A stretch of DNA of 64,000 nucleotides from contig OY755240.1 in the NCBI GenBank assembly GCA_963576725.1, forward strand, positions 33,360,620 to 33,424,619, written 5' to 3'. Each line of letters begins with the position of its first letter. The first letter of the stretch is position 1. Position numbers and translations under genes: made by a program. Positions 843 through 62,636 of this stretch are shown piece after piece. The notes under the pieces are model-generated. The model saw only the letters and a program-made list of their open reading frames with translations, was not told where the DNA came from and did no database searches. Origin of the DNA: Azorinus chamasolen (taxonomy: Eukaryota > Mollusca > Bivalvia > Cardiida > Solecurtidae).

Positions 843-3800
843 CTGAAATATAACATCATCAATATTATACTAATGCTGAGGTCTAGAGCAGAACTTGTCT
901 TAACCCTTTCCCTGTTCAATATTCATGTAAGGAATAATAATATTATGAATATTTATTAGCTGAATTTTTCATATGTACGCAAGATGTTTTTGCTCAGACA
1001 GAAACTATAGAATCAGATCTACATGTATACCATAAGCAAACAGAGCAGACCCTGATCAGACACCTCCTACCAGTCCTCTGATCTGGGTCTACCATTTGCA
1101 AATGCATGAAAGGCGTTTGTATCAAGGAAAGGGTTAAGTGGCCATTCATTTTTAGAACACAGGAGTCTTAAAAAGCAGGCGGTTGCTTCATACTGGGCAA
1201 AAGTAATGCAGAAAACTCCTATAGGAACTTTCTGTATTACTTCTGACCTGCATTAAGATACCACCTGCCTTAAAGACCCATAATTATAAAGGCCCTTAAT
1301 ACAGGTTATACTGCAATTTTCCAACCCTTTATCTCAAGAATATTCATGAAATCAACTAGAAACTGACTCAGTCAGGGAGGGCCCTGTAATCAAGGGCAGA
1401 TAACTCTAGACATAGTGATCTGATTCAACCAAAAAACTATAGGCGTCTTCCTCTGATGATACTATGCATATGCCCTTCATATGAAACCAAATATGAAGTA
1501 GTTTGAGTTTTGGCATCACATCAAAAGTGTTGACAGACAGATGGACAGACAGAAAATGATATTTCTAATGGGCTCCAGCATTTTCAATGCAGGGTCCTAA
1601 TAATGGTATCATTAATATTTATCAGCGTGTATATAAACACAGAATATTTAAGCCAAGATAGAAACTGTAGAATGAGATCAATAACATTCCATAAGCAAAC
1701 AGGCAGACCCTGGTAAAACTTTGAAATCAACTGAAAAACTGGTTTCTGATCAGGCTCTAAAAACTAGTGCCTGATTCAGACTCTAAAAACTGGTGCCTGA
1801 TTCAGGTTTTAAACAAGAGACGCGTGCGTCACCAACGCTTGTTGGATTTGGTGCTTGTCCAGCTAAATTAAACATTTTTGAAAAATATAAAGGGCCAAAA
1901 TCAAGGGTTAAGGTCTTTATGTAGGGTCCTTCCCTTCAATGAGATCTACTAACCTATGAAGTTTCATGTTGATACCTCTTATACTTTTCGATTAATGAGC
2001 TACATTAAAGTTTTTGCATGCCACCAACGACGACGACAACGCCTACAACCCAGTGATCACAATAGCTTGACTTTTCTGTGGTGTCTGTGTCAGACTTTAA
2101 CCTTTACAATGCTGAATTTTCTAATGGACTATTCCAAAATTCAAACAGGTCTAGCTTACAGTGAATATTTAGGGATTTTTCTACAGAAAAGTGTAACATG
2201 TGCAGACCCTGATGAGAAGGCTCCTCTAGGAGCCCTCTATTTGGGTTTACACTGTTTGCAAACTGCCCACATTTACCTTTATATGACATTATGTCAATTA
2301 CAGTGCGAAACTCTCTCTGTTTGCTAATGGAATAATATAGATCCGATTGAGGGTTAGACATTTAATTAATATTCATCATGTTATTTTTTTACATAAGGTT
2401 CTATAATACATGTACTGTCAAATAGTGTTAGTTTGACAACTGGTGCAATAAAGCATCCAGTGTATCATCTGTGAAAACGGAGTGTAGCCATGAGACGAAT
2501 TTACAAAACTGACGTAAAACATATGGGTTTGTCTGATAGATCAGTGTGTAATCTACGATAACAGCATAGCAAAGAGGAGTATTTATGATATGGTAAAACA
2601 TGTTCCTTATTTCTAGACAAAGGTATGACTGAGAACAAAAAGCATTCTTTGATACATCAGTTCTCCTCATATCTACACCTCTAGAGTGTCATAAATTTTC
2701 ACTTACATCAACATGGTCCTCAGCTTAATGAAATCACAGTGATCGGGATTCTCCACCTCCACTACACCCCAGGGGTACATACGACCTCTGACCTTCTTAC
2801 CCTTCACCTCTATTACCGTATTAGACCCAACAACAGCAAATGGCACAGCTTCCTGTAAAACACAAACAAAAGTTTCTCTTGAACCAGTTTTTGTAAAATG
2901 TTCTCTTTTTTTTTTATATCCTGGCGAAAATATGTAAAGTTTATCAACATAAGTTTTAAATTAGCAAAAAATCTTTCAGAGCTTTTGCCAAAAACGTGTC
3001 TCCAACAAAAACAGGATGAATTTTTACCTAAAATGTATCCAAATGGCACATATAAATATCATATTAACCCTTTACTCCATGAATATTCATGTAAGAAATA
3101 ACGACATAATGAATTTTAATTAGATTAATTAATATAATAGTCTTTGCCTTCACAGAAACTGCAGAATCCTATTTATATTATATGAAAGCAAACAGAGCAG
3201 ACCTTCATCAGACGGCTCCTATAGGAGCTTGCAAATGTGCAGAAAGGCATATTTATGGAGTAAAGAGTTAAAACTACATCTCAATGGCAACATTGTAGCC
3301 ACTTAACCCTTTCCTCCATATGTATGCCTTTCTACGCCTCTGTAATAGTCACTTCTTGAAACCATTGTGATAAATAGAGCATATGCTCCTATAGGAACAA
3401 ATGCTCTATTTATCACAATAGTTTCAACTACAAAATTCTAAAATTTTACTTTTCTCCAGTAAATGCTCCTTTTGGGTAGATTCCTTCAAAGAATTTGGGT
3501 CTAAAAATAGCATATGGAGGAAAGGGTTAACAGATAACTGATATAAATGAAACATTTGACCATTCACTTGATGAATATTCATGTAAAGAAATAATGACAT
3601 CATGAATATTGATTAGCTGAAATTTTATACTGGCATGTAAACACAGGAGTTTTAGGCAGCAACTGTAGAATCAGATCAATGATCTGATCAGACACCTCCT
3701 GCAGCATTGGCCGTCTCATCTGGGTCTGCTCTGTTTGCTTATTACATGATATAGGTCTAATTCTATAGTTTATGTCAAAGCAAACACTTCCCTTGGAAAA

Positions 3801-6800
3801 CAAAGAGGGCCAGAATGGCCCTGAAGCGCTCACCAGACAATCAGAGGAGAATATTTTCAAAGTTTTCACTATATGTTTCTATAGAAAACTAGCAGGCCCT
3901 GGGGCTGGGCCAATTTTCACCCCAGGGCCATAACTTAAAAAAATTTGTAGGGGACCTGAACATGATGCTATGAGCCAAATATAAGCTGAGAACCTTCCAG
4001 TTTCAGAGGAGATTTTCAAAGTTTTCTCAATATGTTTCTATTGAAAAGTGCCCACCCCTGTGGCGGGGCCAATTTTGACCCCAGGGCCATAATTTATATA
4101 AATTTTGTAGAGGACCTGAACATGATGCTCTGTGCCAAATATAAAAGCTGAGAGCCTTCCAGTTTCAGAGGAGAAGACTTTCAAAGTTTTCACTATTTGT
4201 TTCTATTGAAAACTGCCCACCCCTGGGGCGGGGCCAATTTTGACCCCAGGGCCATAATTTATATAACTTTTGTAGAGGACCTGAACATGATGCCCTGTGC
4301 CAAATATGAAAGCTGAGAGCCTTCCAGTTTCAGAGAAGAAGATTTTCAAAGATTTCTCAATGTTTCTATTGAAAACTGCCCACCCCTGGGGCGGGGCCAA
4401 TTTTGACCCCGGGCCATAATTCATATAACTTTTGTAGAGGACCTGAACATGATGCTATGTGCCAAATATGAAAGCTGAGAACCTTCTGGTTTTAGAGGAG
4501 AAGATTTTCAAAGATTTCACTATTTGTTTCTATCGAAAACTGCCCACCCCTGGGGCGGGGCCAATTTTGACCCCGGGGCCATAATTTATACAACTTTTGT
4601 AGAGGACCTGAACATGATGCTATGTGCCAAATATGAAAGCTGAGAACCTTCTAGTTTCAGAGGAGAAGATTTTCAAAGTTTTCACTATATGTTTCTATTG
4701 AAAACTGCCCATCCCTGGGGCGGGCCCAATTTTGACCCCGGGGCCATAATTTATATAACTTTGGTAGAGGACCCGAACATGATGCTATGTGCCAAATATG
4801 AAAGCTGAGAATCTTCTGGTTTCAGAGAAAAAGATTTTCAAAGATTTCACTATTTGTTTCTTTTGAAAACTGCCCACCCCTGGGGCGGGGCCAATTTTGA
4901 CCCCGGGGCCATAATTTATAAAAATTTTGTAGAGGACCTGAACATGATGCTATGTGCCAAATATGAAAGCTGAGAACCTTCTAGTTTCAGAGGAGAAGAT
5001 TTTTCAAAGTTTTCACTATATGTTTCTATTGAAAACTGCCCACCCCTGGGGCGGGGCCAATTTTGACCCCAGGGCCATAATTTATATAAATTTTGTAGAG
5101 GACCTGAACATGATGCTCTGTGCCAAATATGAAAGCTGAGAGCCTTCCAGTTTCAGAGGAGAAGATTTTCAAAGTTTTCACTATTTGTTTCTATTGAAAA
5201 CTGCCCACCCCTGGGGCGGGCCAATTTTGACCCCAGGGCCATAATTTATATAACTTTTGTAGAGGACCTGAACATGATGTTATGTGCCAATTATGAAAGC
5301 TGAGAACCTTCTGGTTTCAGAGGAGAAGATTTTCAAAGTTTTACTATATGTTTCTATTGAAAACAAGGCACCCCTGGGGCGGGTCAATTTTGACCCGAGG
5401 GGCATAATTTATATAACTTTTGTAGAGCACCTAAAGATGATGCTATGTGCCAAAGATGAAAGCTGAGAACCCTGTAGATTCAGAGGAGAAGATTTTTCAA
5501 GGTTCAAATTGTTGACGACTGACGACGCAAGCCGACCCACGACGGACATCAGGCGATCACAAAAGCTCACCCTGAGCACTTTGTGCTCTGGTGAGCTAAA
5601 AATATAAAAAATCAGCTAATAAATATTCATGATCCTACAGGAGCTGTCTGATCTGGGTCTACTGTGTTAAAGTCGTAGGGAAGTGTATCTATGAATGTGT
5701 TATGGGTATCCTGAGAATTTTTTTAACTTATAGATGCTCAGAGAAATGCCAGAATTTTTTATGTCAGGCCTGTTGTGATCAAATCACAAGAGGGTAGTTA
5801 AGGACAATTCAAGGGCATCATATGGTGTCCCTGTGTATTTTTTTTAACTGATCCAAAAGTACAGTATCCTCGCACATACAAGCAACATATGATTTGCAAG
5901 TATCTAGCCATCTTCTGACAACTTGTCTGCAATGTCTTTGTGGACTTCCCAAGATTTCATGATCTAAAATCGTTGCATATATATGTACTTTTATGTGGCC
6001 TGTATTGACAGAAGTGAAGAATGTATAGACATCATGATTAAGATTAAATTTTGTGAAAGCTTATAGAGGCTTGCCATTTTATAAATTTCATTTATTTTGC
6101 TCAGATGAAAGTTAATTTTCTTTAACGGAAGGGAAAATGTTTTGAAAACCATCTGTGTGTTTTTAATCAAGTTGAAGTTAAGGTCTGCATCCTGTGTACA
6201 AAGCAACTGCTCACCTTCAACTGTCTGCACTGTTCCTTGTAGTCCTCATCTTCATCATCATCACAGTCTGGGAGAGGGTATAGGTTGATGCCGTACTGTT
6301 CTACCTGCCCCATAATCTGCAATGAAACAATAGCAAAACACCATAACAAACCTGCACCATAATCTGCAAAAAAACAACAGCAAAACACCATAATAAACCT
6401 TTATACAAGAGTGCCAATCTGTCCATATTCATCCTGTTATAGCTTGTTGTACATGTTAATTATTCAAATTCTATTATGTCAACATACCAGAAACACAGCA
6501 AGCTCAAACTTAAGATAAAGTCCCTTCAACAGTTCATATCAGAAAAAACTAGAAAATTGTGTCCGTAGGAAATGGATGCCCAGGAAATGGATGCCCTCTA
6601 GCGATACTGTCTCCAAATCAAACACTTTTCATTACATGTTGTATAGTGAAGAACATTTTAGAGTCCCATAACTCCAGTGAAAGAGGAGTTTATGACACAA
6701 ACAACCCATGTTACATGCAACAAGAGTGCCAGTGGGCACAATATATGCCTGTCGAGGCATTGTTCAACCAAACCATGCTTAACATATCTGCTAAACGCAA

Positions 6801-9800
6801 ATGCTAAATGCAAATACTAAATCCAATTGTGCGACATTGATCTTGGATATACATACCGGGACACGCCCATGCTACTGTGGCATGTCCAGATAAACATTGT
6901 GGTGTAATTTGAGAAGGATCCACCAAGCAGAATTTGAGTTAGAGATGTTGCAGACAGACAGACAGCACCATTCCATAATGCGTCCTTTTTTTTCCAAACA
7001 GATGAAGCTTGTGATGGTAGATAAGTTTTCCAAGTTTTAAGGCTTCATCTCGAAGGATTATATAAATAACTGGACTTTAACAAAAAACTTATAAAAAAAT
7101 TTATAAATTAAAAGGGGTCATAATTCTGTCAAAATGCTTGACAGAGTTATGCACACTTGCCTACAGTTGAAGTTTGTGATGATGAACAAGTGTTCCAAGT
7201 TTCAAAGCTTTATCTCAAAGGGTTATGTAAATAAGTGGACTTTTTCAACATAAATTGAGGTTAACATATTTGCTAAACGCAAAAGCTCCAAGTCCAATTA
7301 TGCGACCTTGACCTTGGATATACCTACCGGGACTGGACATGCTACTGTAGCATGTCCAGATAAATATTGTGGTTAACTTTGAGAAGGATACACCAAGCAG
7401 AACTTGAGATGTTACAGACAGATGAATGGACAGACAGCGCCATTCCATAATGCATCCCGTTTTTTTCAAAAGGGCGTGTAAAAATGACAAAAAATACTTT
7501 AGGGGTGATAGTTCTGCAATGCCTTGTGCTAAACACATTGAGGTTATGTCTTGCACATCTATTATTGGTGGTTAGAGGTGTAATTGATGGTTAGAGGTGT
7601 AATTGATGGTTAGAGGTGTAATTGATAGGAACGATATTGATATATCATCAATTCCTGTCGGTGGATCTGATATTGATACTGGTTTCAAAATATCGATACA
7701 AATGGAGGACATATAAACACCATTCCACAGGCTATATTTCTTACAGGTTGGTAACTTCTTACATACTTGCAGGTAAAATGATTCTTCTGAAGAATTTCCA
7801 TGCATACTATCATTTCCGCCATTTCCCTTCAACCTTTGTTTGCTAGGGTATAACTAGACTATATTTCATAATGGCATATGTACACAGGAAGTTTTAGCCA
7901 TGGCAGAAAATGTAGTCAGATCTATATCATTTCTTAACCCTTCACCTGTTCTATGTTTGTTCCACATTCCAATACCTACTGAACATTCATGGACAAAGAA
8001 CATTCATGGGCAAAATAGTTTTAACGAAATATGGAAGATGGAGCATTGTATCCATGTTAGAAAGTAAATGAACAGATCTTTCAAATTCCATTAGCAAACA
8101 GCGCAGATGGCTCCCTATAGGAGACATCTGATCTGGGTATACTCTGTTCGCAAATGTGTGAAAAGGCGTTAATATGAAGGAAAGGGTTAAGCAAACAGAG
8201 GAGACTTTGATCAGACAGTTCCTACTGAAGCAGTCTGATCTGGGTCTACACTGTGTCTACACAAAGGTGTTCCTAGGTATATCTATGGAGTAAACGGTTA
8301 CTGCTCACCTTCTTCTTTAAGTTCAGCACTTCTTTCTTTGTGAGGGTGTCAGCCTTTGCTATGACTGGGACTATGTTGACTTTGTGGTGTACGGCCTTCA
8401 TGAATGTAATATCTAATGGACGCAAACTGTCAAAAATATAAACAAAACGTAAAATCTAACAATAAGAAACAATGACATCACAAAATAAATTATTTAATTA
8501 GCTGATTTTTTATAAAGGATTTTTGGCCATGGAAGAAACTAGTATCAGATCTATAATTCCATAAGCAAACAGCAGACACTGATCAGAGGGCTCCTGTAAC
8601 AGGGGGCCATTTCAAGATCTACTTGCAGCAGGTCTATTAGTCAAATGAGGACGATACTTATCGATAGGCAGCAGAGATTAAAGAACGACAAACATGGCAC
8701 TTAATTGGATCTGGCTTGCAATTATTAGGAGCACTTTATAAATATCAATCAGTATACACATAATACATGTCTCTACCATTATCACTCGAAAGTATGCTTG
8801 TTAACCTACACCTGGTTTAGGCAGTCACCTGCTGTAAACGGTCAAATTGGCCATTTCCCTAGACTGGCCAATTACAGCAGGTTCAACTGTATATCCATTT
8901 TTTTCTTCATGCAGACAAATGGGAATATAGCTTACAGTGCATTATGTATGATATCTAATCCAGAAACATCTGCATAATCTGTCACCTGTTAGCAGCTACA
9001 GTATTTTGCAGGCTACTGCTGCATATAGATGTCACGTATGTGGCAACTGATCTGACTGTTTGCACAACTTCATAAGCCAAGTTTCTCTGTTGGTGTGGCT
9101 CCAAAATAAAGTGCATTTCAACACATCTTACCCATGACCTGAAGGATTGATGAAGTAGAAACAGCAGTGAACACGATTGTCTATGATGTGTCGACGATTC
9201 AAGCCACTCTCATCATTGAGATACCGCTCAAACTGGTCATCAACATACTGTATGATTGGTTTAAAGCTGAAAAGAGAAATTCTGATAATTATTCTCTGCT
9301 ATTGCTGAGTTCATTCTGCCCATATCTGGTGGTATGGTATCGTTGCTTATGCTTGTACTACTGGTAAACCCTCACTAAAAGTAGAGATAAAGTTTCTATC
9401 TTTAAATTTAAACAGACAATTTGCTGAAGCAAGCTACAATCAATGACATCTCATTTGATCCTTTCCACATTTGCAAACAGAGTAGACCCAGATCAGATGG
9501 CACCTACATGAGCTGTCTGATAAGGGTCTACTGTTTGCTTATGGATTTATATAGATGTGATTCTACAGCATCCTGTGTTCATGTACCATTATAAAAGTTC
9601 AGCTAATGAATATTCATGATTTTATTATTTCTTATATGAATAATGAATAGGGAAAGGGTTAAGTAAAAAAGAATTTGGATGCAGTAACAAGAGTGTTCGA
9701 AGGAACACAAAAATTGTTAATCCGCTGGGTGCAAAAATCAGAACAAAGGGGAATAACGAATCTTACTTACATCAATGGTCCTAACGAGAGGAAGACACAT

Positions 9801-12800
9801 GTGAAATTTGAAAGTTCTATAATGAGTAGTTTAGAAATGACGGCCCAAAAAAGGAAAATGTGACAGACAGACAGACGGACGGACGAAAGAAAAGTAATCC
9901 CTGTGTGACACACTGCCTCTCGGCAGCCGACACATAATATTTCTGTTTTTCAATACAATTCTCTTCACTTTTATTGTTTGGCTATCTAACTCTTTGAATG
10001 TTGAAATTTCAAAGTGGCATGGTCCATCATTGTTTCATGACAAAGAGTCTATTCAGTATGTAAGGGTGTGTATTTATAAACAGTTTTTGAATGACTGCAG
10101 ACCCTGATCAGAAGACTTGCTAGAAGATTTTGAATGACAAACTGTGCAGACCCTGTGGAGTTCCTCTTCTAGGTTCCCTCTGATCTGATTCTACACTATT
10201 TGAAAATGCCAGTCCACTTGCGTCTTGCATTCAAAGGGTTAAGCTAAAACTGCATACATAAATGTTTCTGTTAAAGACAATTAGACACCTCAGTTCTAAA
10301 CAGTAAAGATTTGACCTCACTTCTCTGACAGGCTTCAACTCCATTCTCCCCATAATTTACAGCTGTCATTGTCTAAGCAATTTAGATGGACTTTGGGGAC
10401 ATTTTTTGTCTTACTTCCGTGACAGGATCAATACTTCAAATTTCCTCTTCTACTCATGGCAGAAACCACACAATGCCACTAGCCAACTGAATGACTAATC
10501 ATTTTTGTATTCACATTATGTGTGAATTCTTTATGACCTTTGCAAGCAGTTCCGATCTAGATGAGATAATGAACAGCTATCGTACCATCATTTCTGCATC
10601 TGCTTCTAATCTGGATCCACACAGTTTGCAGAAGTCATCAAATATTATGTATGGTTAACCCTAGGCCTTTCCCCCCCATAAAACACCTTTTCAAACAGAG
10701 TAGACCCTGAGCAGACGACACCTGTAGGAGCCGTCTGATCAGGGTCTGCTGTTTGCTTATGAAATTATTTTATATTTTATTCTAAAGTTTTTACCAATAC
10801 CAAATAACCCTGTGTATATAAGCAATTATTAAAATTCAGTTAATAAATATCCATGATGTCATTATTTCTTACATGAAAAAGAAATAGGGAAAGTGTTGAA
10901 CAATCATCAATGTCCTTTATTTAGCTTTACTTTTACCGACCAAACATTTAATTTATACTATTCTATTGACCTCAAAAAACATGTGACACCTGATTGATTA
11001 CATTCCAAAACAAGGTGTACACCTTTAAACATTTACCTGACAGATACGCCCATTGACGCCATTGCAAACAGAGCAGACAGATCATATGGACCCAGAAGGA
11101 ACTGTCTGATCATAGTTTGCTCTGTTTGCTTATGAAATAATATATTCTACAGTTTCTGTCATGGTAAAAAATTTCTGTGTACAAAATTATGTCATGAAAA
11201 TTCAGCTAATAAATATTCATAGTCATTATTTCTTAACGGACTATTCATGGAGTATAGGTTTAATAGTATACATGTACACTCATATATTAGCAAATTATGA
11301 GTGTCAAACAATTTGGATTTTGATGGTTTGGATCCCAATCATGATAAAAACTGCATGCAAAGGCATGAAAATGAGTTTCTATGAGGGAAAGGGTTAAAGG
11401 TTCCATCCTACAAACAAGCCACTAAATCTCCCATTTCCAACTTACATGAGATATTGGTCTACTAACCCATGCAATGCTGAATTTCAGAGTGAAACAGTCC
11501 ATCATACTTTAACCCATTCCCTCATAGACTATTTTTAGATCCAACCACTTTGAATGAATCTACCCAAAAGGAACATTTACTAGAGAAAAATAAAATTTTA
11601 GAAACCATTGTGAATAATAGAGCATTTGCTCCTATAGGAGCAAATGCTCTATTTGTCACAATGGTTTCACAAAGTGACTTTTACAGAGTCGTCAATATGA
11701 GGGAATGGGTTAAAGATGTAGTCCAGTCAGTACGAAAAGCTATAATTTGCAAGAGAATTTTGAATAACTAAAAGTGCAGTACCTGATCAGAGGACTTCTC
11801 TAGGAGCCCTCTAATGTGGGTCTACACTGTTTGCAAATGCCAGTACACTCGTTTCCCACAAAGGCTAATGTTCAAAACAATATTCAGGCTTTTATTGCTA
11901 ATTTCCTCCAATTAATGAAAAAAAGTTCTCTCCAATAACCAATTTTGCTGGCAGGAAATAACTCTGTTAATGTCCAAACAATACAGAGAAAGCTGTACAT
12001 AAAAGGCTTTCAGTGTTACTATCTGTGATTGAAATAAGACACAGGGAAATATAACCTTGAGAATATGGGAGATTTATACCCAATTATTTGCTCTGTATAT
12101 GAAAGTGTGAAGTCTCCTGGGAGGGAAATAATGTTAACCCTTTGTATGCTGAATATTTAACCCATTCCTCCATAGACTATTTTTAGACCCAACCCCTTTG
12201 AATAAATCTACCCAAAAGGAGCGTTTACTAGAGATTTTTTTTTTTTTTAAATTGTGTAGTTTTGAAAGCATTGTGATAAATAGAGCATTTGCTCCATAGG
12301 AGCAAATGCTCTATTTATCAGAATGGGTTCATTAAGTGACTTTTACAGAGGTTTAGAAAGGCGTATTTATGGAGGAAATGGTTAAGTGGAATTTGCCCAT
12401 CATGTTTAACTATTCAGTGTTTAACCCTTTCCTCCATAAGTACGCCTTTCTATGCCCTTACAAACAGAGTAACGCCGACACATTCAGCTAATTAATATTC
12501 ACACTACCATTAAGTTTATATGAATATTCATGAGATACAGGGTTAAGGATTAATATCATACAGTTCTGAGGCCCAGAGTCATCTACCTTGTCATTAACAC
12601 AGCATGGCAAATCCTAAATCATGATAAGTCATTAACCCTTTCCCCGTTCTGTGTTTATTCCAAATTTCTGTACGTACTGAATATTCGTGGACAAAATAGT
12701 TAGCGAAATATCATAGAAGGAGGAACAATGTAGCAAATTTTAGAAACTTAAAGGAACAGATCAATCAAATTCTATTAGCAAACAACTGACCCTGATCAGA

Positions 12801-15800
12801 CGGCTCCTATAGGAGCCATCTGATCTGGGTCTACTCTGCAGATCTATGTGAGAAAAGGTGTTTATATGAAGGAAAAGGTTAACAGCACGGCAACTATACT
12901 ACATGATAAGTCATTAACAAAGAGAATTTTCTACTAACTGCAACTAAGGAACCATGGCAGCACCTTCCTCAATCATTATATAGTGTATATTGTTAGTAAT
13001 CATTGTTTCAAACAGTTCAAACCCTCATGAGATGCAAGGCCCAGCTAAAGGTTTATGTATAATTCTCCTAGCTTGCTTAGGCTAGTTATCATGCTTAGCC
13101 GCCCAGTCTTAGACGAGGATATTTTCTTTGTACATACCAGTCTACTGAGTTAAGTGAGTCACCAAAGCCTGGCGTATCAACAACTGTGAGCCGTAACTTC
13201 ACACCTCTCTCTTCTATCTCAACTGTTGATGCATCTATTTTTACTGTCTGCTGTATTTTCTCTGAAATGCAAAACAGTTTACTCATAGAAAATGAACAAG
13301 AGTTTGGTAAAACCTTGGCATACAAATATGGAGTGAGGCTACACTGTGTCTCTTTCTTCATGATTCAAAACGCTTAACCCTTTACTCCATGAATATTTAT
13401 GTAACATATCATGACAGCATGAATATTAAATAGCTGAATCTATTATATAATGGTATATAAACGTACTCTTTCCCTGTCATGCCACTCTTTGCCCATTAAC
13501 CTTTTACTTCATGTAAAAGCCTTTTCAAACAGAGTAGACCCAGTTCAGGCAGCGCCTACAAGAGCCGTCTGATCAGGGTCTTCTCTGTTTGCTTACGAAA
13601 TATATAGATCTGATTCTAGTTTCTGCCAAGGTAATAAAACGTGTTAACTCATTACCTCATAGGATATTTTTAGACCCAACCTTTTTGAATAAATCTACAG
13701 AAAAGGAGCATAAACTAAAGAAAAGGAACATTTTAGAATTTTGTAGTTTGAAACCATTGTGATAAATAGAGCATTTGCTCCTATAGGAGCAAATGCTCTA
13801 TGTATCACAATGGTTTCAACAGGTGTCTTTTGCAGATGCCTCAAAAGGTGTAAGGGAAAAATATAAGGGAATGGGTTAATGTACCATTATAAAACTGCTA
13901 ATACTCATGGTTTCCTTAATTATTTCTTACATATATATTCAACAGGAAAAGGCTTAGGAAAATTAATATTGGTAAGAATATTAAAACAGAAAATTCATAA
14001 CAGGAAATTTATAGTGATAGCAGTAGAGAATGAGTGTTACATATTAACACACAGAGCAAACCCTAATCAGATAAACTCCTAAATATAGCAGTAGAGAATG
14101 AGTGTTACGTATTAACACACAGAGCAAACCCTAATCGGATAACTCCTACAGATAGCAGTAGAGAATGAGATGTGTTACGTATTAACACACAGAGCAAACC
14201 CTAATCGGATAACTCCTACAGAGCCTGTCTGATCAAGGTCTACTCTGTTTGCAAAAATTTCCATGTAACGGGTGAAGTATTTGTATGAGATGTATAACTG
14301 CCAAGCAGAAAACAAAGCAATAATAAAATAATGTTGCTTTTTTTTTAAAAATCCAGATAAGATAAATTACAAATCTTTGCTAATACTCATGTGTCAGATA
14401 AGGACATAAATCAGTTAATATACAAGACAGGGTTAGTGCCCTTCATCAGACTGTGACCCATGTATATGAAATAACCATACTATTTTAAAATCTTGCTTGC
14501 TAAACCCTATCATGTTGGTACTCATTTGAGGTAATACTAATGAGTACCTGAAAGAGATAGGTCTGGGGAGCAAGAACAGACTTTGATCAATCAGATTGTC
14601 TCATTCCTTTACTTTGTAGAAACACCTTTGCAAATAGAGTAGACCATGACCAGACGATTTCTGTAGGTTCTGTCTATTCAAGGTCTGCTCCATTTGCTAT
14701 ACGGAGTAATAAAGATCTGATAACCAAAAATACCTGTGTGCATAATTATGCCGTAATAAAAAATAGATATTCATGAAATTCATAAAGTCATTATTTCTTG
14801 CATGAATATTCATCAGATAAAGCTGTTATGTAAAGCTGTGTAAGATGGAGTCGAAGCAAAGTAAGCTTTGCGTGCTGTAGACATTACGCCTAGTTTACAT
14901 TTGCCCTAAAATGAGTTTATGGTGCATGTAGACTTTTCATAAGGTCGTACGATCTCTGCACGGGCATTGTTCGGAGGCCGCACAAGGATCGGGCAACAAA
15001 CGGCCTATATTCGGTAGAGATGTAGCCAAATAAATTGTATGGTCATCGCAAGGTTGCCACTCGGTATCTGTGCATTACACGTGAAATCGTATGTACATCG
15101 CACGGTCATCCTGCGGCAACCTCATGGCGACTACACAATGGCCGTGTGGCAATTTGGTGATTTCAGATAGGTACATATTTATGTGACATTTCCTGCATTA
15201 ATAGTTTGTCTATATATAGAAGTAGGGAAACCACATGGGCTCTGCATCGCAGGATCTCCTTATGGTTGCCACTCAGTCATCGTACGGGTAAGCCCTGATC
15301 AGTTTACACAAATTATCATATGATGATCACATGCAATGTAAAAAGAAACATCGCAACCCGTAGACTTCTACGATAAACAAGATGTGATTGTGAAAAACAC
15401 TATGCCCCCTCGATATGATATTTGACCCTGAAGGATGACCTTGATCTTGACATGTCACCCCTCAAACTGTGCAGCTTCATGGGGTACACATGCATACCAA
15501 ATATCAAGTCTGTATCTCTACTGATTCAAAAGTTATGGCCAATGTTAAAGTTGGTGACCTTTGACCATGAAGGATGACCTTGACCATGACATGTCAACCT
15601 TCAAACTGTGCAGCTTCATGAGATACACATGCATACCAGTATCAAGGCTGTATATCTACTGGTTCAAACGTTATGGCCAATGTTAATGTTGGTGACCTTT
15701 GACCCTTCAAAGATGACCTTGACATGTCACCGCTCAAACTGTGCAGCCAAATGAGAAACACATGTATACCAACTATCAAGTCTGTATCTCTACTGGTTCA

Positions 15801-18800
15801 AAAGTTATGGCCAATGTTAAAGTCGGTGACCTTTGACCCTGAAAGATGACCTTGACATGTCACCCCCAAACTGTGCAGCTTCATGAGATACATATGCATG
15901 CCAAATGTCAAGTCTGTATATCTACTGGTTCAAAAGTTATGGCCAATGTTAAAGTCGGCGACCTTTGACCCTGAAAGATGACCTTGACATGCCACCCCAA
16001 ACTGTGCAGCTTCATGAGATACACATGCATACCAAATATCAAGACTCTATCTCTATTGGTTAAAAGGTTATGGCCAATTTGAAGTTGGTGACCTTTGACC
16101 ATGAAGGATGACCTTGACATGTCACCCCTCAAACTGTGCAGCTTCATGATATACACAAGCATGCCACATATCAAGTCTCTATCTGTACTAGTTCAAAAGT
16201 TATGGCCAATGTTAAAGATAGTGATTTGACCCATATGTTTGACCTCTGACCTTTAAGGATGACCTTGACCTTGACATGTCACCATGTGCGGCTTTATGAG
16301 ATACATATGCATGCCAAATATCAAGTCTCTATCTGTACTGGCTCAAAAGTTATGACCAATGTTAAAGTTACAGGCAAACAATTTGACCCTTGACCCTGAA
16401 GAATAACCTTGACCTTGACATGTCACCCCTCAAAATGTGCGGCTTCATGAGATACACAAGCATGCCAAATATCAAGTCTCTATCTCTACTGGTCCAAAAG
16501 TTATGGCCAATATTAAAGTTACAAAGAAACTGACAATTTGACCTTTGACCCTGAAGGATGACCTTGACCATGACATGTCACCCCTCAAAATGTGCAGCTT
16601 AATGAGATACATAAGCATGCCAAATATCAAGTCTCTATCTCTACTGGTCCAAAAGTTACGGCCAATGTTAAAGTCAGTGATTTGACCCATATATTTGACC
16701 CCTGACCTTGAAGGATGACCTTGACGTGTCACAAAATGTGCGGCTTTATGAGATACATATGCATGCTAAATATCAAGTCTCTATCTGCACTGGCTCAAAA
16801 GTTATGACCAATGTTAAAGTTGCATTAAAGTTACAGACAAAGAAACAGACAATTTGACCTTTGACCCTGAAGGATGACCTTGACATGTCACTCCTCAAAA
16901 TGTGCAGCTTCATGAGATACACAAGCATGCCAAATATCAAGTCTCTATCTCTACTGGTCCAAAAGTTATGGCCAATGTTAAAGTCGGTGATTTGACCCAT
17001 ATATTTGACCTCTGACCTTGAAGGATGACTTGACCTTGACATGTCACACCTCAAAATGTGCGGCTTTATGAGATACATATGCATGCCAAATATCAAGTCT
17101 CTATCTGTACTGGCTCAAAAGTTATGACCAATGTTAAAGTTGCTGACAAACAAACAGACAAACAGACAAACAAACAGACAGGGCAAAAACAAGATCTGAT
17201 CTGGGGGGGCATAAAAAAAAATATCGCAGGATAATCGCAGACAAAGAAATCATACGGCCTCCGGGAAAAATGTAAACTAGGCATTATCAGGGTTATGGCA
17301 ATACCTCAACGTTTTCATGTAAATAACAAATTGAAATGAAGTGAAAAGCAACATCAAATCAAAGCAAGTTCAAATCAGGCAATATTCCACATAGTTTGGC
17401 TGTGTTTATTCTCAATGTGTGTTTAGCAATTTTATCTCTTCCTCTACTCTCATAATGCCTGCCAATCCTTTTTACCAAGTCACATTTTTTCTGTTAGATC
17501 CTTATTTAATTTTATCCCACTTTTCGGGCAACCATAAAATTTTGATGAACTGTAACCATTTGTATGCATTGTTTAGACAAAGTGAGCAGCCAATATCAGC
17601 ATACAACATGCATAAAAACAGCCTTGAGGAACAGTAACCCTTTGAATGCTGAAATGGTCCATCACTGTTTGAACCTTTCCCCTCACAAACACACATTTTC
17701 ACACATTGCAAACAGAGTAGACCCAGATCAGACAACTCCTGATCAGGGACTGCTCTGTTTGCTTTTGATATAGATCCGTCGTGACTCTACAGTTTTTGTC
17801 AAAGCCAAACATTCCCATGAAAAGTTTACATTATAAAAAGCGAGCTAATAAATATTGATGTTGTCATTATTTCTTACATGAACACTGAACAGGTAAAGGG
17901 TTAAGCCGAGTTCATTTAGTATAAATGGCTATCATTTCAGAGAGGATTTTAAATGACTAACAGTATACACGTATACAGTAAAACCCCTCTAAACCGGGCA
18001 TTCAAATTAGTATCAATATCGATTTTTAAGACAGGTGGCAGCTTAATGCAGGGTGAAAGTCATACAGAATACTCCTCTAGGATTTTTCTGTATGACTTTC
18101 ACCCTGCATTAAGCAGCCACCAGCCTAAACATATCTACATTCTTCTCTACTAGAATTCCGGTTTAGGGGGGTTTTACTGTACGCATTTTCCACATCTTTC
18201 TATGTTGTATTCTTAGCCCAATTTGTGACAAGCTTTACTAACAGGCCGGATCCAGATGCTCAAACTAGTAGGTGTCTCATCAAAATCAAAACGGTTTTGA
18301 CCTTCTCAGATGTCGAGATAAGATGTGTAAATTGAAACACTTCAAAGAATAGCTAGCTCCTTTATTTCTCCATCAAACCCTAGCTTATGATGATTTTAGT
18401 ATTTGGGTATGCATGTTTATCTGTAGGTCTGCATTCTGATCTATTTTGTGTGAAGTAGAACCAACAGTTTTTGAAGGCAAAACTAACCCCGTCTTAACCC
18501 TTACCTCAGACACCTTAAGCAAACACAGCAGACCTAGATCAGATGGCTCCTATAAGACTTGTTTGGTAAGGGTCTGATGTTTGCTTATGGAACTATACAG
18601 AACAGCTTCTAATGTTTCTGGTATGCCACATGTTCCCTTGTAAATACACCATTATATTAAGTGCATCGCATGCGGGTGCCAACGCTCATCTGTTCAACTA
18701 CAGCCCTTGTGACATTGAACAAGTGTGCCAAGTTTCACAAGATTTGCAGGAATAGTAAAGAAGTTACATAGCCAACATTAAAGTTTCCAGACGACAAGAA

Positions 18801-21800
18801 GGTGGACGCAAGAGTTATGACAATAGTTTTTTCTTTGAAAAACAGATGAGCTAAAAATGCAGTCAACGTATAAAATTGATGAAGTGATAATAAAGGATTA
18901 AAGGGAACTAGAGGTTTTTGTCAAAAAAACGGATGTCTCCCCTCTAATAAAAACAATATGTAAAGGGAAATCACTAAAACTGTTATGGTCTTGATGAATG
19001 ATACTTCCCCTCAGTATGCGTTTTCCACACTACATTTTTCAAGAAGAATATGATAACAGCTAATAACTCCAAAAATACTGATACCAGATTTATGGCCCTT
19101 GTGCATGACACTTACTTTCATCATGCTCTTTCCAAAAATAAAATGTCATTCCAATAGCATCAGTCGAACAGGAGTTATTGATCGGCCAAAAAATGTAACA
19201 AAGGGCAATAACTCCAAAAGAATTGAAGCCAGAATTATGGCCCTTGTTCATGACACTTTCTCTCATCATGCTCTTTCCAGGTATGAAGTTTCAATACGAT
19301 GGCAAGAGCCATGTAGGAGTTATCGTCCGGACAAGAAAGAATTAAACAAATGTACATGGGGCAATAACTCTAAATTTATTGAAGCTCGAGTTAAGGATCT
19401 TATGCATGACACTTTCTCTTATTATGATCGTTCCATGTATGAAGTTTCACTCCAATGGCATGTGTCACATAGGAGTAATCATCTGGACAAAAGGTTGTGA
19501 TTTTTTTTTTACAAGGGCAATAACTCCAATATTAGTGAAGCCAGAGTTATGGACCTTGTGCATGACACTTCCTCTTGTTATGATCTTTCCATATATGAAG
19601 TTTCAATCCAATGGCATGAGCCATATAGAAGTTGTCGTCCGGACAAAAAAGTGTGATTTTTTTACAAAGGGCAATAACTCCTATATTAGTGAAGCCAGAG
19701 TTATTTTCCTTCTGCATGACACTTCCTCTCGTTATGATCTTTCCATATATGAAGTTTCAATCCAATGGCATCAGGCATATTGAAGTTATTGTCCGGACAA
19801 AAATTTATGATATTTTTTACAAAGGGCAATAACTCCAATATTAGTGAAGCCAGAGTTATGGACCTTGTGCATGACACTTCCTCTCATTATGCTCTTTCCA
19901 TATATGAAGTTTCAATCAACTGGCATCAGGCATATTGAAGTTATTGTCCGGACAAAAAATTATGATATTTTTTACAAAGGGCAATAACTCCAATATTAGT
20001 GAAGCCAGAGTTATGGACCTTGTGCATGACACTTCCTCTCGTCATGATCTTTCCATATATGAAGTTTCAATCCAATGGCATGAGCCATATAGGAGTTATC
20101 GTCCGGACAAAAAAGTGTTTTTTTGTTTTACAAAGGGCAATAACTCCAATATTAGTAAAGCCAGAGTTATGGACCTTGTGCATGACACTTCCTCTCATTA
20201 TGCTCTTTCTATATATGAAGTTTCAATCAACTGGCATCAGGCATATTGAAGTTATCGTCCGGACAAAAAGTGTGACAGACAGACGGACAGACAGACAGAC
20301 GGACAGACAGACAACTCTCACGAAAACAATATGTCTCCCCCATATAAATATGGGGGGAGACATAATAACATCTAGAGGGTATATTCCAACATGACAAGGA
20401 TGTGAAAGTCTTTTGGATCCAGCTGATATGACATTTAAGCGGGATTCTGATCAAGATCCAAACTATTACATTCCTTCAACACATAAGCAGAGCAAACAGT
20501 TTAGTTTTGGAGGAGATGTTGCTTGGATCTACCCTATTTAACCTATATATTCCAAACTTCCATTTCCACCACTTTGTAAATTGTGTAATTCTAATTGGCA
20601 CTACTTTGATCATTTAGAAATTTCTAGCAAAAACTATAGACCTTAATCAAACTACTACTTTAGAATCAGTTTGATCTAGGTCTACACTATTTGACTGTCC
20701 TTAGCATCAGTTTGATCTAGGTCTGCACTATTTGACTGTCCTTCACGATCAGTTTGATCTAGGTCTGCACTATTTTACTGTCCTTCAGGATCAGTTTGAT
20801 CTAGGTCTGCACTATTTTACTGTCCTTCAGGATCAGTTTGATCTAGGTCTGCACTATTTGTCTGTCCAAATTCTTAGAGTAATTTAGATACAAATGCATG
20901 ACACGTACACGCGCATCTCTAATTTTAGGTATTAATCCTTTCCCTCATGAATATTTATACAATATTTTTGACTTCATGAATACTCATAAACTTAATTTTT
21001 ACCACCCGTTACTCCATAAATATACCTTTCTATACCTTTGCAAACAGAGTAGACCCAGATCAGACCGCTCCTATAGGAGCCACATGATCGAGGTCCTCTA
21101 TTTGCTTAAGGAATAATATCGATCTGATTCTACAGTTTCTGCCATATCTAAACAATTCCTGTGTTCATGTGTCATTATAAAAATAAATCTAATTAATATT
21201 CATGATGTTATTATTTCTTACATGAATATTCATGGATAATGGACAATGAACAAGGGAAGTTTTGACCTTGGCATAAACTGTACAATCAGACCTATATCTG
21301 ATCAGACAATTTTGATCTGGGTCTGCTCTGCAAAGGCGTGGAAAAGCGTTATTTAAGATCCCATCTACCAAAAGTAAGAATCATTATCTTATATACTGGC
21401 TTACAAGGTGCTTATCATATTCACCTGCTGGGCACACCCAATTAAACAAATCTGGTATAAACTAGATAACACAGGAAACATAAACAACTCAAATCTAAAC
21501 AGATTATAACAGAAGAGAAACAATATCCCCCACTTGTGGTGTCTGTAATTTACAGAAGATTAATTTTAAGTCATTCCAAAACTGAAATACTATGTATTTC
21601 TCCATAATGTTAGAACATGAATATCATATCCCAACTCTTAAATGCTGATTTTTCAAAGTGGAATGGTCCGTCATTGTTTAACGATGGTCCATTCAGTATG
21701 ATTGGTGTAATTTGTGTGAGGAAAGTGCAGACCCTGATCAAAGGAACCTTCTACGAGCGCTTTGATCTGTGTCTATACTGTTTGCAAATGCAGCTGGTAC

Positions 21801-24800
21801 ACTTGTATTTAACTGTCAAAGGATTAACAAGGTGCTGGTCTCAAAACAATAGCCAGTTTGACCTTGACCTTTACAGGCCACCACTCAAAAGGTGTTGCTT
21901 CATGAGATGTGTATTCATGCCAAGTATAAGACAACCAATTTGGAAATATGACAAAAGTTAGTTTCAGACAGACAAAGGCTCGAACAGACAAACTGACTAA
22001 ATACAACAAGACTTCGACCTTGATCTTTGGGGCATAAAAACTGCATTTGTTTTAACCCTTTATTCCATAAGTATGCCTTTCTACACCTTTGCAAACAGAG
22101 TAGACCAAGATCAGATGACTCCTATAAGAGCCATCTGATCAGGGTCTCCTCCGTTTGCTTATGAAATAATATAGATATGATTCTATAGTTTTTAGTATGG
22201 CTAAAACTTCCCACCATGTCCATCAGTGTCACTATAGCGGTGGTCACAACCAGCCCTACGTGCAAGTGCGTGTTGTTTACGTGCAAAAACGTGGGGAAAT
22301 TTTGAGGATCTGTACGTGGTGAGTACTGCCTCCGTACGGATTTAGAAGCACGCAGACACGCCGTAGCACTTTTAGTGCATGCAAAACTTTCGCTGCGTTC
22401 GGGCTACGGATTCACCAACGTACATGTGACGCACGTGCCTTCTACACCCAACGTGCGCACAACGCACGGACTCCGTGAGTGTTTTAATATTTTTTCCAAA
22501 CAGTCGCTTGCTCTACAGACGGCGCACTTAGCACGTGCGTGTTGCGCACGTGATAAGTATGTGCTCACTCGGCACTTCCCCAATTCTACTGTCCAATGAA
22601 CTGACAAAACTCACGTGGACCCTACGTGAGCTGCACGTGTAAGTACGGCCTCCATACAATAATGTGGCAATCGTACGTTGTGAGAACTTTCAACTCACTT
22701 ACCACGTGTGCAATGTACGATGCACGCAACCGACCAGGGCGAAGCATGGTGTGCGTGCCACGTACGTACATCTTGCGCAACCGTACGTGTGACATGCGTT
22801 CCTCCCTGCATTTGCTACTCCTTCCCCACATTTTCAGTAAAACGTAGCCGCCGTGGCCTCCCCAAAAATGTACGTGCTAAAAACATGCACGGCGGGTTGT
22901 GACCAGGCCTTTAGATTAATCCAGTTCCTATTCATTCTGTCATTATTTCTTACGTGAATATTCATGGCGTAAAGAATTAAAGACTGGTGTTCAACTGACT
23001 TTGACTAAACAAGATGTTTGTGAGACAATATGGCTCCGATATGACCTTTGACCTTGATGTATGACCGTGACATTTATAAGTCACCCCTAAAAATGTTTGC
23101 CTCCATAAGTTGCACATGCATGCCAACTCTGAAGTCTGACCAACCGACCAACAGACAGAGCAAAAAATGCATGCCTTTGTAAATACATAAGACTAAAAGC
23201 AAAACAAGTTGCAAAAGGGCCCATGTAATCTTGGTCTGTATTGCTATCCATTTGAAATTCTTTCTTTGCAATATTTTTCAAGTCTGAACACTTCAAATGA
23301 CAATATATTCAATATCCAGGATCCAAAGGGTTGATATATGGAATGAGAAACTGAGACAAGGAAGTAGCTGTAATGATAAAGTTGCATAATAGTCAGTAAA
23401 ACAACCACTCAAAATTCTGAGTTATTTTTCAGACAGGTGGTGACTTAACCCTTTACCGGTTTCATATTTATTCAAGAATTCTTCACGTTATGTATAATTA
23501 TGAACAGAATTAACAAAATGGAACATGGAAAAAGGGATTGTTTCACTGTTGTGGAAACTGCATAAGCAAACAGCAGATCTTGATCAGATGGCTCCTATTG
23601 TAGATGTCTGATCTGGCTCTACTCTGTTTGCAAATGCATTTATATGAAGGAAAGGGTTAACCCTCGACTCCATTAATATTCATGTAAGAAATGATAACAT
23701 CATGAATATTTATTACCTGAATTTTTAAAATGATACATAAATAAAGGAAATGTTGCCCATGAAAGAAGCTGTAGAATCAAATCCATATTATTCCATAAGC
23801 AAACAGAGCGACCGTTAGACTGTTCCTGCAGGAGCCATCTGATTTCAGTCTACTCTGTTTGCAAAGGTATTTAAGGTGTATCTATGGCATAAAGGGTTAG
23901 CTTTCTGAATTATTTTCATTCTACATTATTAATAATAAACTACCATCTGATTTTACAGACCCTAAGATTTATTCATCTACTGTTCGGTATACATAGATTT
24001 TACTATAGCTGCAATATATCTCATTTTTTACTCTGCATATCATTTCAAAGTATACAGAACAACCTCTCTATAACGGCCACTAAATTGTATTAATTAGTTG
24101 GTATTTAGGGCAGGTGGCTGCTTAAAGCAAGATGAAAGTAAAACAATGCTCCTATAGGAGCGTTCTGTTTTACTTTCACCTTGCTTTAAGCAGCAGTCTG
24201 CCTTTAACACAAAATACTTGGATGTAATTTAGTGGCCGTTATAGAGAGGTTTTACTGTAGTTTTATGTGTATTATTTATACATCTCTTTTCCCCTCTCAG
24301 TCTTGAGGTGATCTGAAAATATTTTGCTATTAAATGCATAAATTCATATGAAACTAGGTCAATTTCAGCAGCTGAACGGAACATTAAGTACCAAGTAGAT
24401 GAGTGCATATTGCAAGAGGCCCTACCCTGCGTACATACCATTGAGTAAGAGGCCCTACCCTGTGTACATACCATTGAGTAAGAGGCCCTACCCTGTGTAC
24501 ATACCATTGAGTAAGAGGCTGTACCCTGCGTACATACCATTGAGTAAGAGGCCCTACCCTGTGTACATACCATTGACTAAGAGGCCGTACCCTGCGTACA
24601 TACCATTGAGTAAGAGGCCCTACCCTGCGTACATACCATTGAGTAAGAGGCCCTACCCTGTGTACATACCATTGAGTAAGAGGCCCTACCCTGTGTACAT
24701 ACCATTGAGTAAGAGGCCCTACCCTGCGTACATACCATTGAGTAAGAGGCCCTACCCTGTGTAAATACATACCATTGAGTAAGAGGCCCTACCCTGCGTA

Positions 24801-45218: not shown

Positions 45219-45365
45219 CCCTTCATTTCTCCACCAAACCCTATACTGTGACCACTCTTTAGAATCGCCTCAAAGAAACGATTCTAATGAGTGGTCACTG
45301 AGTATATACCGTTGGGTGGAGAAATGACGAATTTAGTATTTGGGTATGCACCTTTATCTGTAGTT
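45219..45365. mobile_element. Small hairpin repeat, CATTTCTCCACCAAACCC type
   Basis: GTGACCACTCTTTAGAATCG pairs with CGATTCTAATGAGTGGTCAC, and outer TTTCTCCACC pairs with GGTGGAGAAA. A hairpin-less relative is at 18355-18440 (TTTCTCCATCAAACCCTAG, then TTTAGTATTTGGGTATGCA). Confidence 0.65.
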
Positions 45366-48507: not shown

Positions 48508-48718
48508 TTAACTCATTACCTGCTCAATATTCATGTAAGAAATCATGAATATATATCAGCTGAATTTTTACAATGTAAAATTTTGGAGGGAATTTTTCAC
48601 ATTGACAAAAATTGTAGAATTAGATCTCTATCTTGTTATAAGCAAACTGAGCAAACCCTGATGAGACGACTCCTACAGGAGAAGGCCTAAAAAGCATTTA
48701 TTTGAGGTAAAGGGTTAC
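48508..48718 (+). mobile_element. Family A MITE with shortened hairpin
   Basis: TTAACTCATTACCTGCTCAA to GAGGTAAAGGGTTAC; the hairpin right arm is deleted after CTCCTACAGGAG. Confidence 0.82.
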
Positions 48719-49641: not shown

Positions 49642-49868
49642 TTAACTCATTCCCTCCTAGTGACGCATTTTTGCGCCTCTGTAAAAAGTCACATTTGAAA
49701 TCATTATGATAAATAGAGCATTTGCTCCTATAGGAGCAAAAAATTTAATGCTCTATTTATCCCAATGGATTAAAACTACAAAATTCTATTTTTTTCTTTT
49801 TCTATACTTAATGCTCCTTTTTGGTAGATTTATTCAAAGAGGTTGGGTCTAAAAATAGTCTCGGAGCG
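49642..49868. mobile_element. Family B MITE fused to family A
   Basis: TTAACTCATTCCCTCCTAG, stem with apex GCTCCTATAGGAGC followed by an extra AAAAATTTAA, then CTAAAAATAGTCTCGGAG. There is no GGGTTAA; the sequence passes directly into a family A arm (AATACGCCTTTCTATGTC). Confidence 0.85.
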
Positions 49869-51082: not shown

Positions 51083-51313
51083 TTAACCCATTCCCTCATA
51101 TTGACGACTTTTGGCGACTCTGTAAAAGTCAATTTGTGAAACCAATGTGATAAATAGAGAAGTTGCTCCTATAGGAGCAAATTCTCTATTTATCACAATG
51201 GTTTCAAACTACAAAATTCTAAAATATTTTCCTTTTCTCTAGTTAATGCTCCTTTTCGGTAGATATATTCAAAGAGGTTGTGTCTAAAAATAGCCTATGA
51301 GGTAATGGGTTAA
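51083..51313. mobile_element. Family B MITE, full length
   Basis: TTAACCCATTCCCTCATATT to GAGGTAATGGGTTAA. The stem at 51138-51205 differs from other B copies by a paired change (GAGA...TCTC where others have GAGC...GCTC). Confidence 0.94.
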
Positions 51314-55285: not shown

Positions 55286-55503
55286 TTAAAACCCTTTCCT
55301 CCATAAATACGCCTTTCTACTCCTCTGTAAAAGTCACTTTTTGAAACCACTGTGGTAAATACAGCATTAAATTTTGCTCCATAGGAGCAAATGATCTATT
55401 TATTACAATGGTTTCAATATTACATAATTCTAAAACTTTCCTTTTCTCTAGTAAATGTTCTTTTTCGGTAGATCTAAAAGTAGTCTATGGAGGAAAGAAT
55501 TAA
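55286..55503. mobile_element. Family B MITE
   Basis: TTAAAACCCTTTCCTCCATA to GGAGGAAAGAATTAA; apex TTGCTCCATAGGAGCAAAT, left arm interrupted by an extra AAATT. Confidence 0.9.
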
Positions 55504-57853: not shown

Positions 57854-58065
57854 TTAACCCTTTGAACGCGAAATCGAGTATATTGACATTTGCAAACAGT
57901 GTAGACTAAGATTAGAGGGCTCCTACAGGAGCCCTCTGATCAGGGTCTGCACTATGTCATTAAAATTCTTCTCTCAAATTACACTCATTCATACTGAATA
58001 GAATATATTTTTAACCAAAGATAGACCATTCAAATTGAAAATTCAGCGTTCAACTGAGCTGATCC
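57854..58065 (-). mobile_element. Family C MITE, reverse
   Basis: TTAACCCTTTGAACGCGAAA to TTCAGCGTTCAACTGAGC, with a well-preserved hairpin, apex GGGCTCCTACAGGAGCCC. Confidence 0.82.
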
Positions 58066-59365: not shown

Positions 59366-59367
59366 TT

Positions 59368-60137: not shown

Positions 60138-60140
60138 GAG

Positions 60141-62460: not shown

Positions 62461-62636
62461 ACAGTAGAACATGCCTTAAGCGGCCATCAAAAATGTCTGT
62501 GTCGGTAAAACAGGTGGTAGCTTAATGCAGGTTAAAAGTAATGCATTACTTTTGTTTACTATTGTCCTGCATTAAACAACTACTAATATTCTTATAATCA
62601 ATAATTGAATGGCTGCTTAAGACAAGTTCTACTGTA
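62460..62636. mobile_element. Family D MITE at the end of the 39-bp array
   Basis: TACAGTAGAACATGCCTTAA to AAGACAAGTTCTACTGTA; stem CTTAATGCAGGTTAAAAGTA with a deleted apex (GCATTACTTTTG). Confidence 0.88.

What the first reader, a model, noticed from the sequence alone, without database searches (positions are those of the whole stretch)
3303..24259. Four MITE families share one hairpin apex, CTCCTATAGGAG
Families A, B and C (TTAA ends) and D (TACAGTA ends) have different outer sequences. Their central palindromes nevertheless all close on CTCCTATAGGAG or near variants: A near 12806, B near 13780, C near 42710 and 57919, D near 24151. Independent origin of the same apex in four families is unlikely. 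Either the apex is a mobile or copied module, or it is a functional site such as a protein-binding palindrome that several element lineages keep or acquire. I know of no described counterpart.
Basis: partly seen in the sequence, partly recalled or inferred. Interest (0 to 1): 0.78.

Follow-up and report, generated by a model that had tools for sequence, protein, structure and literature searches.

The report
Unrelated hairpin MITEs share one tip
Three kinds of small hairpin-shaped jumping DNA, whose hairpin arms look unrelated and which carry two different types of transposon end, turn on the same 14-letter tip, which suggests that the tip is passed on as a module or does a job of its own.

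Summary
A palindrome scan blind to the motif found 19 strong hairpins (none in one shuffle), all in A/C, B or D copies; 17 of 19 centre on the apex or a near variant. HMM recruitment gives 78 A/C, 11 B and 6 D copies with consensus centre GCTCCTATAGGAGC; recruitment by arms alone repeats it for A and B, more noisily for D. Two further families matching the half-site by chance: about 2e-8 or less.

Corrections. C has A's arms, so there are three palindromes, not four. A and B share one outer end, so only D (Tigger-like ends) is outwardly foreign. Copies of A and B do not conserve the apex better than the arms (A 0.79 against 0.85-0.86), the two central bases vary, and A/C shows no compensatory pairing. 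Sharing exists at source-element level only.

Best reading: the tip is an inherited module of hairpin MITEs, kept while arms and outer parts are swapped, perhaps by fold-back copying at the tip (0.42). A host-factor or mobilisation site is the main rival (0.28). Other animal genomes, and the window's own, could not be examined.

The parts
12776..12838 (-). family A hairpin core; apex 12804-12815 CTCCTATAGGAG exact
22052..22163 (+). family A copy: TTAA end at 22052, outer segment, hairpin core 22089-22163, apex 22119 CTCCTATAAGAG (right outer part not included)
900..1137 (-). complete A element (TTAA to TTAA) inside the left end of a D element; the D copy at 40770-40866 has the empty TTAA site
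13644..13879 (.). complete family B element (TTAA to TTAA) inserted in an A element; hairpin core 13748-13819, apex 13778-13789 exact
3356..3427 (.). family B core, apex 3386 CTCCTATAGGAA; a TTAA lies at 3303
44849..44920 (.). family B core, apex 44879 CTTCTATAGGAG
51137..51207 (.). family B core, exact apex 51166
42676..42749 (+). family C (arms of A) hairpin core, apex 42711 CTCCTAGAGGAG
57889..57957 (+). family C hairpin core, apex 57920 CTCCTACAGGAG; TTAACCCTTTGAACGC end at 57854
24053..24259 (.). complete family D element, TACAG...CTGTA ends; hairpin core 24108-24203, apex 24149 exact
18029..18126 (.). family D core, apex 18072 CTCCTCTAGGAT (two mismatches)
40770..40866 (.). family D core, apex 40813 CTCCTAAAAGAG
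1173..1271 (.). family D core, apex 1216 CTCCTATAGGAA
60139..60234 (.). family D core with shortened apex GCTCCCAAGAGC; an A element lies in its left flank
62511..62582 (.). family D copy whose apex is lost by a central deletion
37525..37577 (.). family B copy whose apex is lost by a central deletion
3186..3236 (-). one-armed A copy: outer end joined directly to an intact 14-bp apex
48638..48681 (-). one-armed A copy: outer end joined directly to the apex (CTCCTGTAGGAG)

Best explanation
These are non-autonomous hairpin MITEs: A, B and C insert at TTAA (piggyBac-like by recall), D has TA-CAGT ends (Tigger/pogo-like by recall). The 14-bp tip GCTCCTnnAGGAGC is one inherited module. Elements exchange outer parts and hairpin arms around it, so the tip is the innermost and most widely shared layer. 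Proposed mechanism: an existing hairpin MITE loses one arm, leaving the short self-complementary tip next to other DNA; when single-stranded, the tip folds back, primes copying of that neighbour and makes a new palindrome with new arms and the old tip. Shown: the shared tip, arms of A and B unlike in register, a shared A/B outer end, one-armed copies with the tip joined to other DNA, insertion at TTAA; A's hairpin in several outer contexts (read by eye). Inferred: fold-back copying, the direction from A, and that D got its tip the same way.
For: Consensus centre GCTCCTATAGGAGC in A/C (78 copies), B (11) and D (6); arms-only recruitment repeats it in A (25 of 49 paired loci have the modal spacing) and B (6 of 9), more noisily in D (independent alignment). 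A and B arms show no in-register similarity (7-8 of 28, shuffle mean 7.3-7.4), yet A and B share about 33-36 bp at one outer end: a 36-base probe has 9 hits, 5 beside B cores, 3 beside A cores, 1 beside neither. A's hairpin sits in at least three right-hand outer contexts (by eye). In 11 of 78 A copies the HMM match covers one arm only, and in some of these the tip abuts the outer segment or unrelated DNA. Outside the families the half-site GCTCCTA is not enriched (3 of 110,462; composition expects 3.6e-5 per site). Selection on inserted copies is not needed.
Against: No intermediate (one new arm plus tip) was seen; B and D arms as single arms were not seen among the 11 and 6 HMM copies and were not listed separately. 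One-armed break points were not shown to be enriched at the tip. The 14-mer is no outstanding DNA hairpin (rank 2976 of 16384). Signs of distant arm relationship: A-D 13 of 28 in register for A's left arm (P 0.018-0.025), 10 of 28 for its right arm (P 0.23); B-D 12 of 28 (P 0.08-0.09); A right arm against B by free local alignment score 15 (P 0.013-0.020); all uncorrected. The D query also hits one A copy weakly across the tip (E 0.012). These would favour divergence from a common palindrome.
Confidence: 0.42

Rival explanations
1. The tip is a functional site used by source elements: two inverted AGGAGC half-sites with a free 2-bp spacer, bound by a dimeric host protein, or a hairpin tip needed for mobilisation or amplification, which elements of two superfamilies keep or acquire.
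For: The half-site GCTCCT is the same in A, B, C and D consensus sequences while the central two bases differ, as in a dimer site. Seven of 78 A/C copies have a deletion of 4 or more columns across the centre, with seven different pairs of break points, so no apex-less subfamily is seen to have spread (low power). In D the inner 12 bases agree slightly better than the arms (0.883 against 0.844 and 0.823).
Against: 14-bp apex against arms: A 0.787 against 0.860/0.846; B 0.938 against 0.942/0.944; D 0.848 against 0.844/0.823, though dead copies need not be conserved. No compensatory changes in A/C (B and D not tested). Two superfamilies with different transposases would need a common host factor; none is known to me.
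Confidence: 0.28
2. A, B and D descend from one ancestral palindrome by ordinary divergence; the arms changed beyond recognition and the tip did not.
For: A and D share CAGAnnGCTCCTA; A left arm and D 13 of 28 in register (P 0.018-0.025), B and D 12 of 28 (P 0.08-0.09), A right arm and B local alignment P 0.013-0.020, all uncorrected; weak D-to-A hit E 0.012 including the tip.
Against: A and B arms are at chance in register (7-8 of 28) although their outer ends and tip are nearly identical, a block pattern that point mutation does not give. It would need constraint on the tip, which A and B copies do not show.
Confidence: 0.18
3. Coincidence: unrelated palindromes happen to have the same centre.
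For: A perfect palindrome needs only 6-7 half-site bases to match, and three families are compared. A hairpin with another centre exists (45272).
Against: About 2.4e-8 (6-mer) to 7.4e-10 (7-mer) for two further families, by frequencies outside the families; for one family such as D 1.5e-4 to 2.7e-5 (computed after the pattern was noticed).
Confidence: 0.04

Closest known systems
Palindromic (foldback-type) MITEs with TTAA target sites, piggyBac-like (recalled)
   Same: Short, no coding sequence seen, TTAACCC...GGGTTAA ends, insertion at TTAA shown by nested copies
   Different: Hairpin tip shared with a family of other arms and with elements that have another kind of end
Tigger/pogo-like MITEs (Tc1/mariner superfamily; recalled)
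   Same: D: TA-CAGTA.AAC..CTCTA/TTAA.CGG-type ends
   Different: Same central 14-mer as the TTAA elements
SINE families sharing a highly conserved central domain (CORE, V and others; recalled; PMC6887750 seen only in the search listing with the start of its abstract)
   Same: One central module in families with different outer parts; by its title that paper links spread of the V domain to a DNA transposon
   Different: Retrotransposons, not palindromic, module much longer (recalled); here a 14-bp hairpin tip in DNA transposon derivatives

Membership tests
MITE (non-autonomous DNA transposon) | Short element with inverted ends, dispersed in many copies | tested here: met
   Complete A, B and D copies of 238, 236 and 207 bp with inverted ends; 78, 11 and 6 core copies
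piggyBac-like TTAA element (A, B, C) | Insertion at and duplication of TTAA | tested here: met
   A at 900-1137: flanks TTGTC-TTAA and TTAA-GTGGCC of a D copy; empty in another D copy (ATGTCTTAAGCGGCC near 40733). B at 13644-13879 in an A copy has TTAA on both sides, but no sister A copy with that empty TTAA was shown. C was not tested
piggyBac-like TTAA element (A, B, C) | Mobilised by a piggyBac-family transposase | not tested
   No transposase was searched for; a Pfam scan of window ORFs failed and was not repeated
Tigger/pogo-like element (D) | TA target site with CAGT-type inverted ends | tested here: inconclusive
   TACAG...CTGTA ends read in D copies; no empty site for D examined
Tigger/pogo-like element (D) | Related transposase | not tested
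   Not searched for
SINE with shared central domain | Retrotransposed element without terminal inverted repeats | tested here: not met
   Inverted ends and TTAA insertion instead
Conserved structured RNA | Match to a known RNA family | tested here: not met
   No Rfam match at gathering score in the window
Conserved structured RNA | Covariation of paired positions | tested here: not met
   A-type (37 copies) 17 double changes against 16.4 shuffled; C-type (20 copies) 15 against 13.6; B and D not tested

The most novel reading that the evidence does not exclude
A 14-bp palindrome is a trans-superfamily hairpin tip needed for the birth or amplification of palindromic MITEs (through a host factor or by fold-back priming), so that piggyBac-like and Tigger-like MITEs of one genome come to carry the same centre.
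Probability: 0.25. Interest if true: 0.85.

Novelty: new variant of a known kind. Interest (0 to 1): 0.55.

Why it matters
How perfectly palindromic MITEs arise is, to my knowledge, unsettled. A tip shared by hairpins with unlike arms and by two kinds of transposon ends would mark the step that makes the palindrome. If it is a fold-back seed, new MITE families can be traced to their parent; if it is a binding site, a host factor common to two transposon superfamilies awaits identification. Either can be tested by counting in a complete genome.

Tried and rejected
Functional constraint on copies: not shown by conservation or covariation in A. Special hairpin stability: the 14-mer ranks 2976 of 16384 palindromic 14-mers by DNA folding energy, not an outlier; the model gives the same energy for all sixteen centres tested. 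Genome-wide abundant motif: not enriched outside the families in this window. Wider occurrence: 50 stretches of viral contigs were returned with GCTCCTATAGGAGC; the best arm match beyond the 14-mer is 12 of 20, which I take as chance or terminators. Longer family patterns: 1 hit (already in the first set) and 0 hits in viral contigs, 1 hit in prokaryote contigs without a long hairpin. Apex-centred break points: one-armed copies (11 of 78) and central deletions (7 of 78) are seen, but local alignment favours some positions and no enrichment is claimed. RNA families: none. Ten paper searches gave nothing on this motif by title and abstract start; the four papers that hold the string CTCCTATAGGAG are unrelated by title, and the bivalve/MITE/satellite papers listed were not opened.

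Weak points: the consensus queries contained the apex, which is why one search repeated the recruitment with arms only; there the three D copies with the modal spacing gave AAAGATCCTATAGGAGTTTT, a noisier centre. The chance figures were computed after the pattern was noticed. The outer consensus sequences of A were read by eye. Single-shuffle control only.
Full report
OBSERVATION. CTCCTATAGGAG is present at the stated places: 12 exact copies, 7 in family A, 4 in B, 1 in D. The count excess (79 matches at up to 3 mismatches against 21 in shuffles) is mostly copy number, so I tested the claim without using the motif. A scan for palindromes of any sequence gave 19 peaks at score 14 or more and none in one shuffle; all 19 are in A, B or D copies. 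Seven have the exact 12-mer, seven have it with 1-2 mismatches, three with a 1-2 base deletion, and two (27585, 37550) have lost it by central deletions. A laxer scan gave 44 peaks (three shuffles: 0, 0, 1): 18 A, 9 B, 6 D and 11 others. None of the 11 others has the apex at its centre; they include a hairpin at 45272 that scores as high as several family copies (24-bp arms, centre GCCTCAAAGAAAC) and peaks inside tandem arrays. So not every hairpin has the tip, but all three multi-copy hairpin families found in the window do.

FAMILIES. HMM recruitment with full cores found 78 A/C, 11 B and 6 D copies, with median identity to consensus 0.84, 0.94 and 0.84. The consensus centre is GCTCCTATAGGAGC in all three (D from 4-6 letters per column). 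Recruitment by arms only, with the centre left out of the query, gave CGGCTCCTATAGGAGCCG for A (25 of 49 loci had the modal spacing) and GCTCCTATAGGAGC for B (6 of 9 loci). In D, 3 of 6 loci had the modal spacing and gave AAAGATCCTATAGGAGTTTT; of the other three, one reads GCTCCTATAGGAGC (24146), one GCTCCCAAGAGC, one has lost the centre. C shares A's arms and differs at few positions (20 of 57 near-complete A/C copies carry its marker T in column 12), so it is a subfamily of the same hairpin with other outer segments. The four families are therefore three palindromes.

THE TIP IS SHARED, NOT SPECIALLY CONSERVED. Mean agreement with consensus for the 14-bp apex against left and right arms: A 0.787, 0.860, 0.846; B 0.938, 0.942, 0.944; D 0.848, 0.844, 0.823. 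For the inner 12 bases: A 0.797, B 0.928, D 0.883, so D alone is slightly above its arms, on 5-6 copies. In A the centre varies: column 37 is A in 16 and G in 17 of 37 A-type copies; C-type copies have A-G by plurality (10 and 8 of 20). Pairing between the arms shows no compensatory excess: A-type 17 double changes against 16.4 in shuffles, C-type 15 against 13.6 (B and D not tested). Inserted A copies thus decay like ordinary DNA. That is expected of dead MITE copies and does not tell whether source elements need the tip.

CHANCE. Outside the families the half-site GCTCCT has frequency 17 of 110,462 and GCTCCTA 3 of 110,462. Two further families matching a first one at the exact centre have probability 2.4e-8 (6-mer) or 7.4e-10 (7-mer). 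The figures are post hoc, but the palindrome scan did not choose families by their tip.

LAYERS OF SHARING. A and B share about 33-36 bp at one outer end (consensus read by eye; a 36-base probe hits 9 places, 5 beside B cores, 3 beside A cores, 1 beside neither). Then their arms differ (7-8 of 28 in register, shuffle mean 7.3-7.4), then the tip is the same again. A's hairpin occurs, by eye, with at least three right-hand outer segments: one ending in TTACATGAATATTCATGGAGTAAAGGGTTAA, one with CAGTAGGTATTG near the end, and C's with TCAGCATTCAAAGGGTTAA. D has Tigger-like ends and clearly shares only the tip. Results that point to a distant relation of arms: A left arm and D 13 of 28 in register (P 0.018-0.025; A right arm 10 of 28, P 0.23), B and D 12 of 28 (P 0.08-0.09), A right arm and B by free local alignment P 0.013-0.020; the other free alignments gave P 0.24-0.74. 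Twelve comparisons of each kind were made, without correction. The D query hits one A copy at E 0.012, across the tip.

TTAA INSERTION. A sits at 900-1137 in the left end of a D copy: the flanks read ..TTGTC|TTAA and TTAA|GTGGCC, and the D copy at 40770-40866 has ATGTCTTAAGCGGCC undisturbed. A second A element (59361-60139, with a tandem array inside) lies in the left flank of the D copy at 60139: D-like AATTAGAATCAATATCTTTTTTAA precedes it, compare AATTAGTATCAATATCGATTTTTAA in the D copy at 18029; its right end reads TTGA. B sits at 13644-13879 in an A copy, with TTAA on each side.

MECHANISM. The block pattern (shared end, unlike arms, shared tip) is easier to get by replacing arms around an inherited tip than by point mutation. 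New arms on both sides at once imply that one side was copied from the other, which is what fold-back priming on a short palindrome would do. One-armed A copies in which the tip abuts the outer segment or unrelated DNA exist (11 of 78 are covered on one arm only), so substrates are present; intermediates with a new arm were not seen. The tip is no exceptional hairpin, so if it is a seed, this would be because an abundant element carries it (A, B and D cores with 10-bp margins cover 12.8% of the window), not because of its stability. A dimeric binding site (two AGGAGC half-sites, free spacer) remains the main rival.

ELSEWHERE. No counterpart was found in viral contigs (50 stretches with the 14-mer, none with long arms; two longer patterns) or prokaryote contigs (one pattern, 1 hit without a long hairpin). 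A septin-2-like exon on the minus strand (13140-13280; E 3.6e-18 to chain 9bht_A, named CiSeptin-2) lies among the elements.

LITERATURE. Ten full-text searches showed no report of this tip or of these sequences by title and abstract start; no paper was opened.

VERDICT. A sharing of a hairpin tip by three MITE palindromes with two types of ends, unlikely to be chance, without visible selection on A and B copies. Interest 0.55.

Noticed in passing
900-1137 and 59361-60139: A elements lie in the left flank of 2 of 6 D copies, at TTAA sites; the second carries a long tandem array (59518-60098) inside it and its right end reads TTGA.
   Followed up: partly
45225-45326: A hairpin with ends ATTTCTCCACC...GGTGGAGAAAT and a different centre, a control hairpin without the shared tip; further copies were not looked for.
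   Followed up: partly
20658-20867, 28554-28775, 30543-30705, 14016-14222: Tandem arrays that look, by eye, built from pieces of the A/C hairpin core (for example AGTGCAGACCCAGATC units).
   Followed up: no
13140-13280: Septin-2-like exon on the minus strand.
   Followed up: yes
43407-44053: Long inverted repeat (arms of 115 and 71 bp, 83% and 86% complementary) around 275 bp, not one of the hairpin families.
   Followed up: no
49695-49771 and 55341-55417: Two B copies share an AAATTT-type insertion on one side next to the tip: perhaps a B subfamily that spread with a slightly broken palindrome.
   Followed up: partly
3841-5504 and 32077-33580: Two distant arrays of what looks like the same 165-bp tandem repeat.
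   Followed up: no
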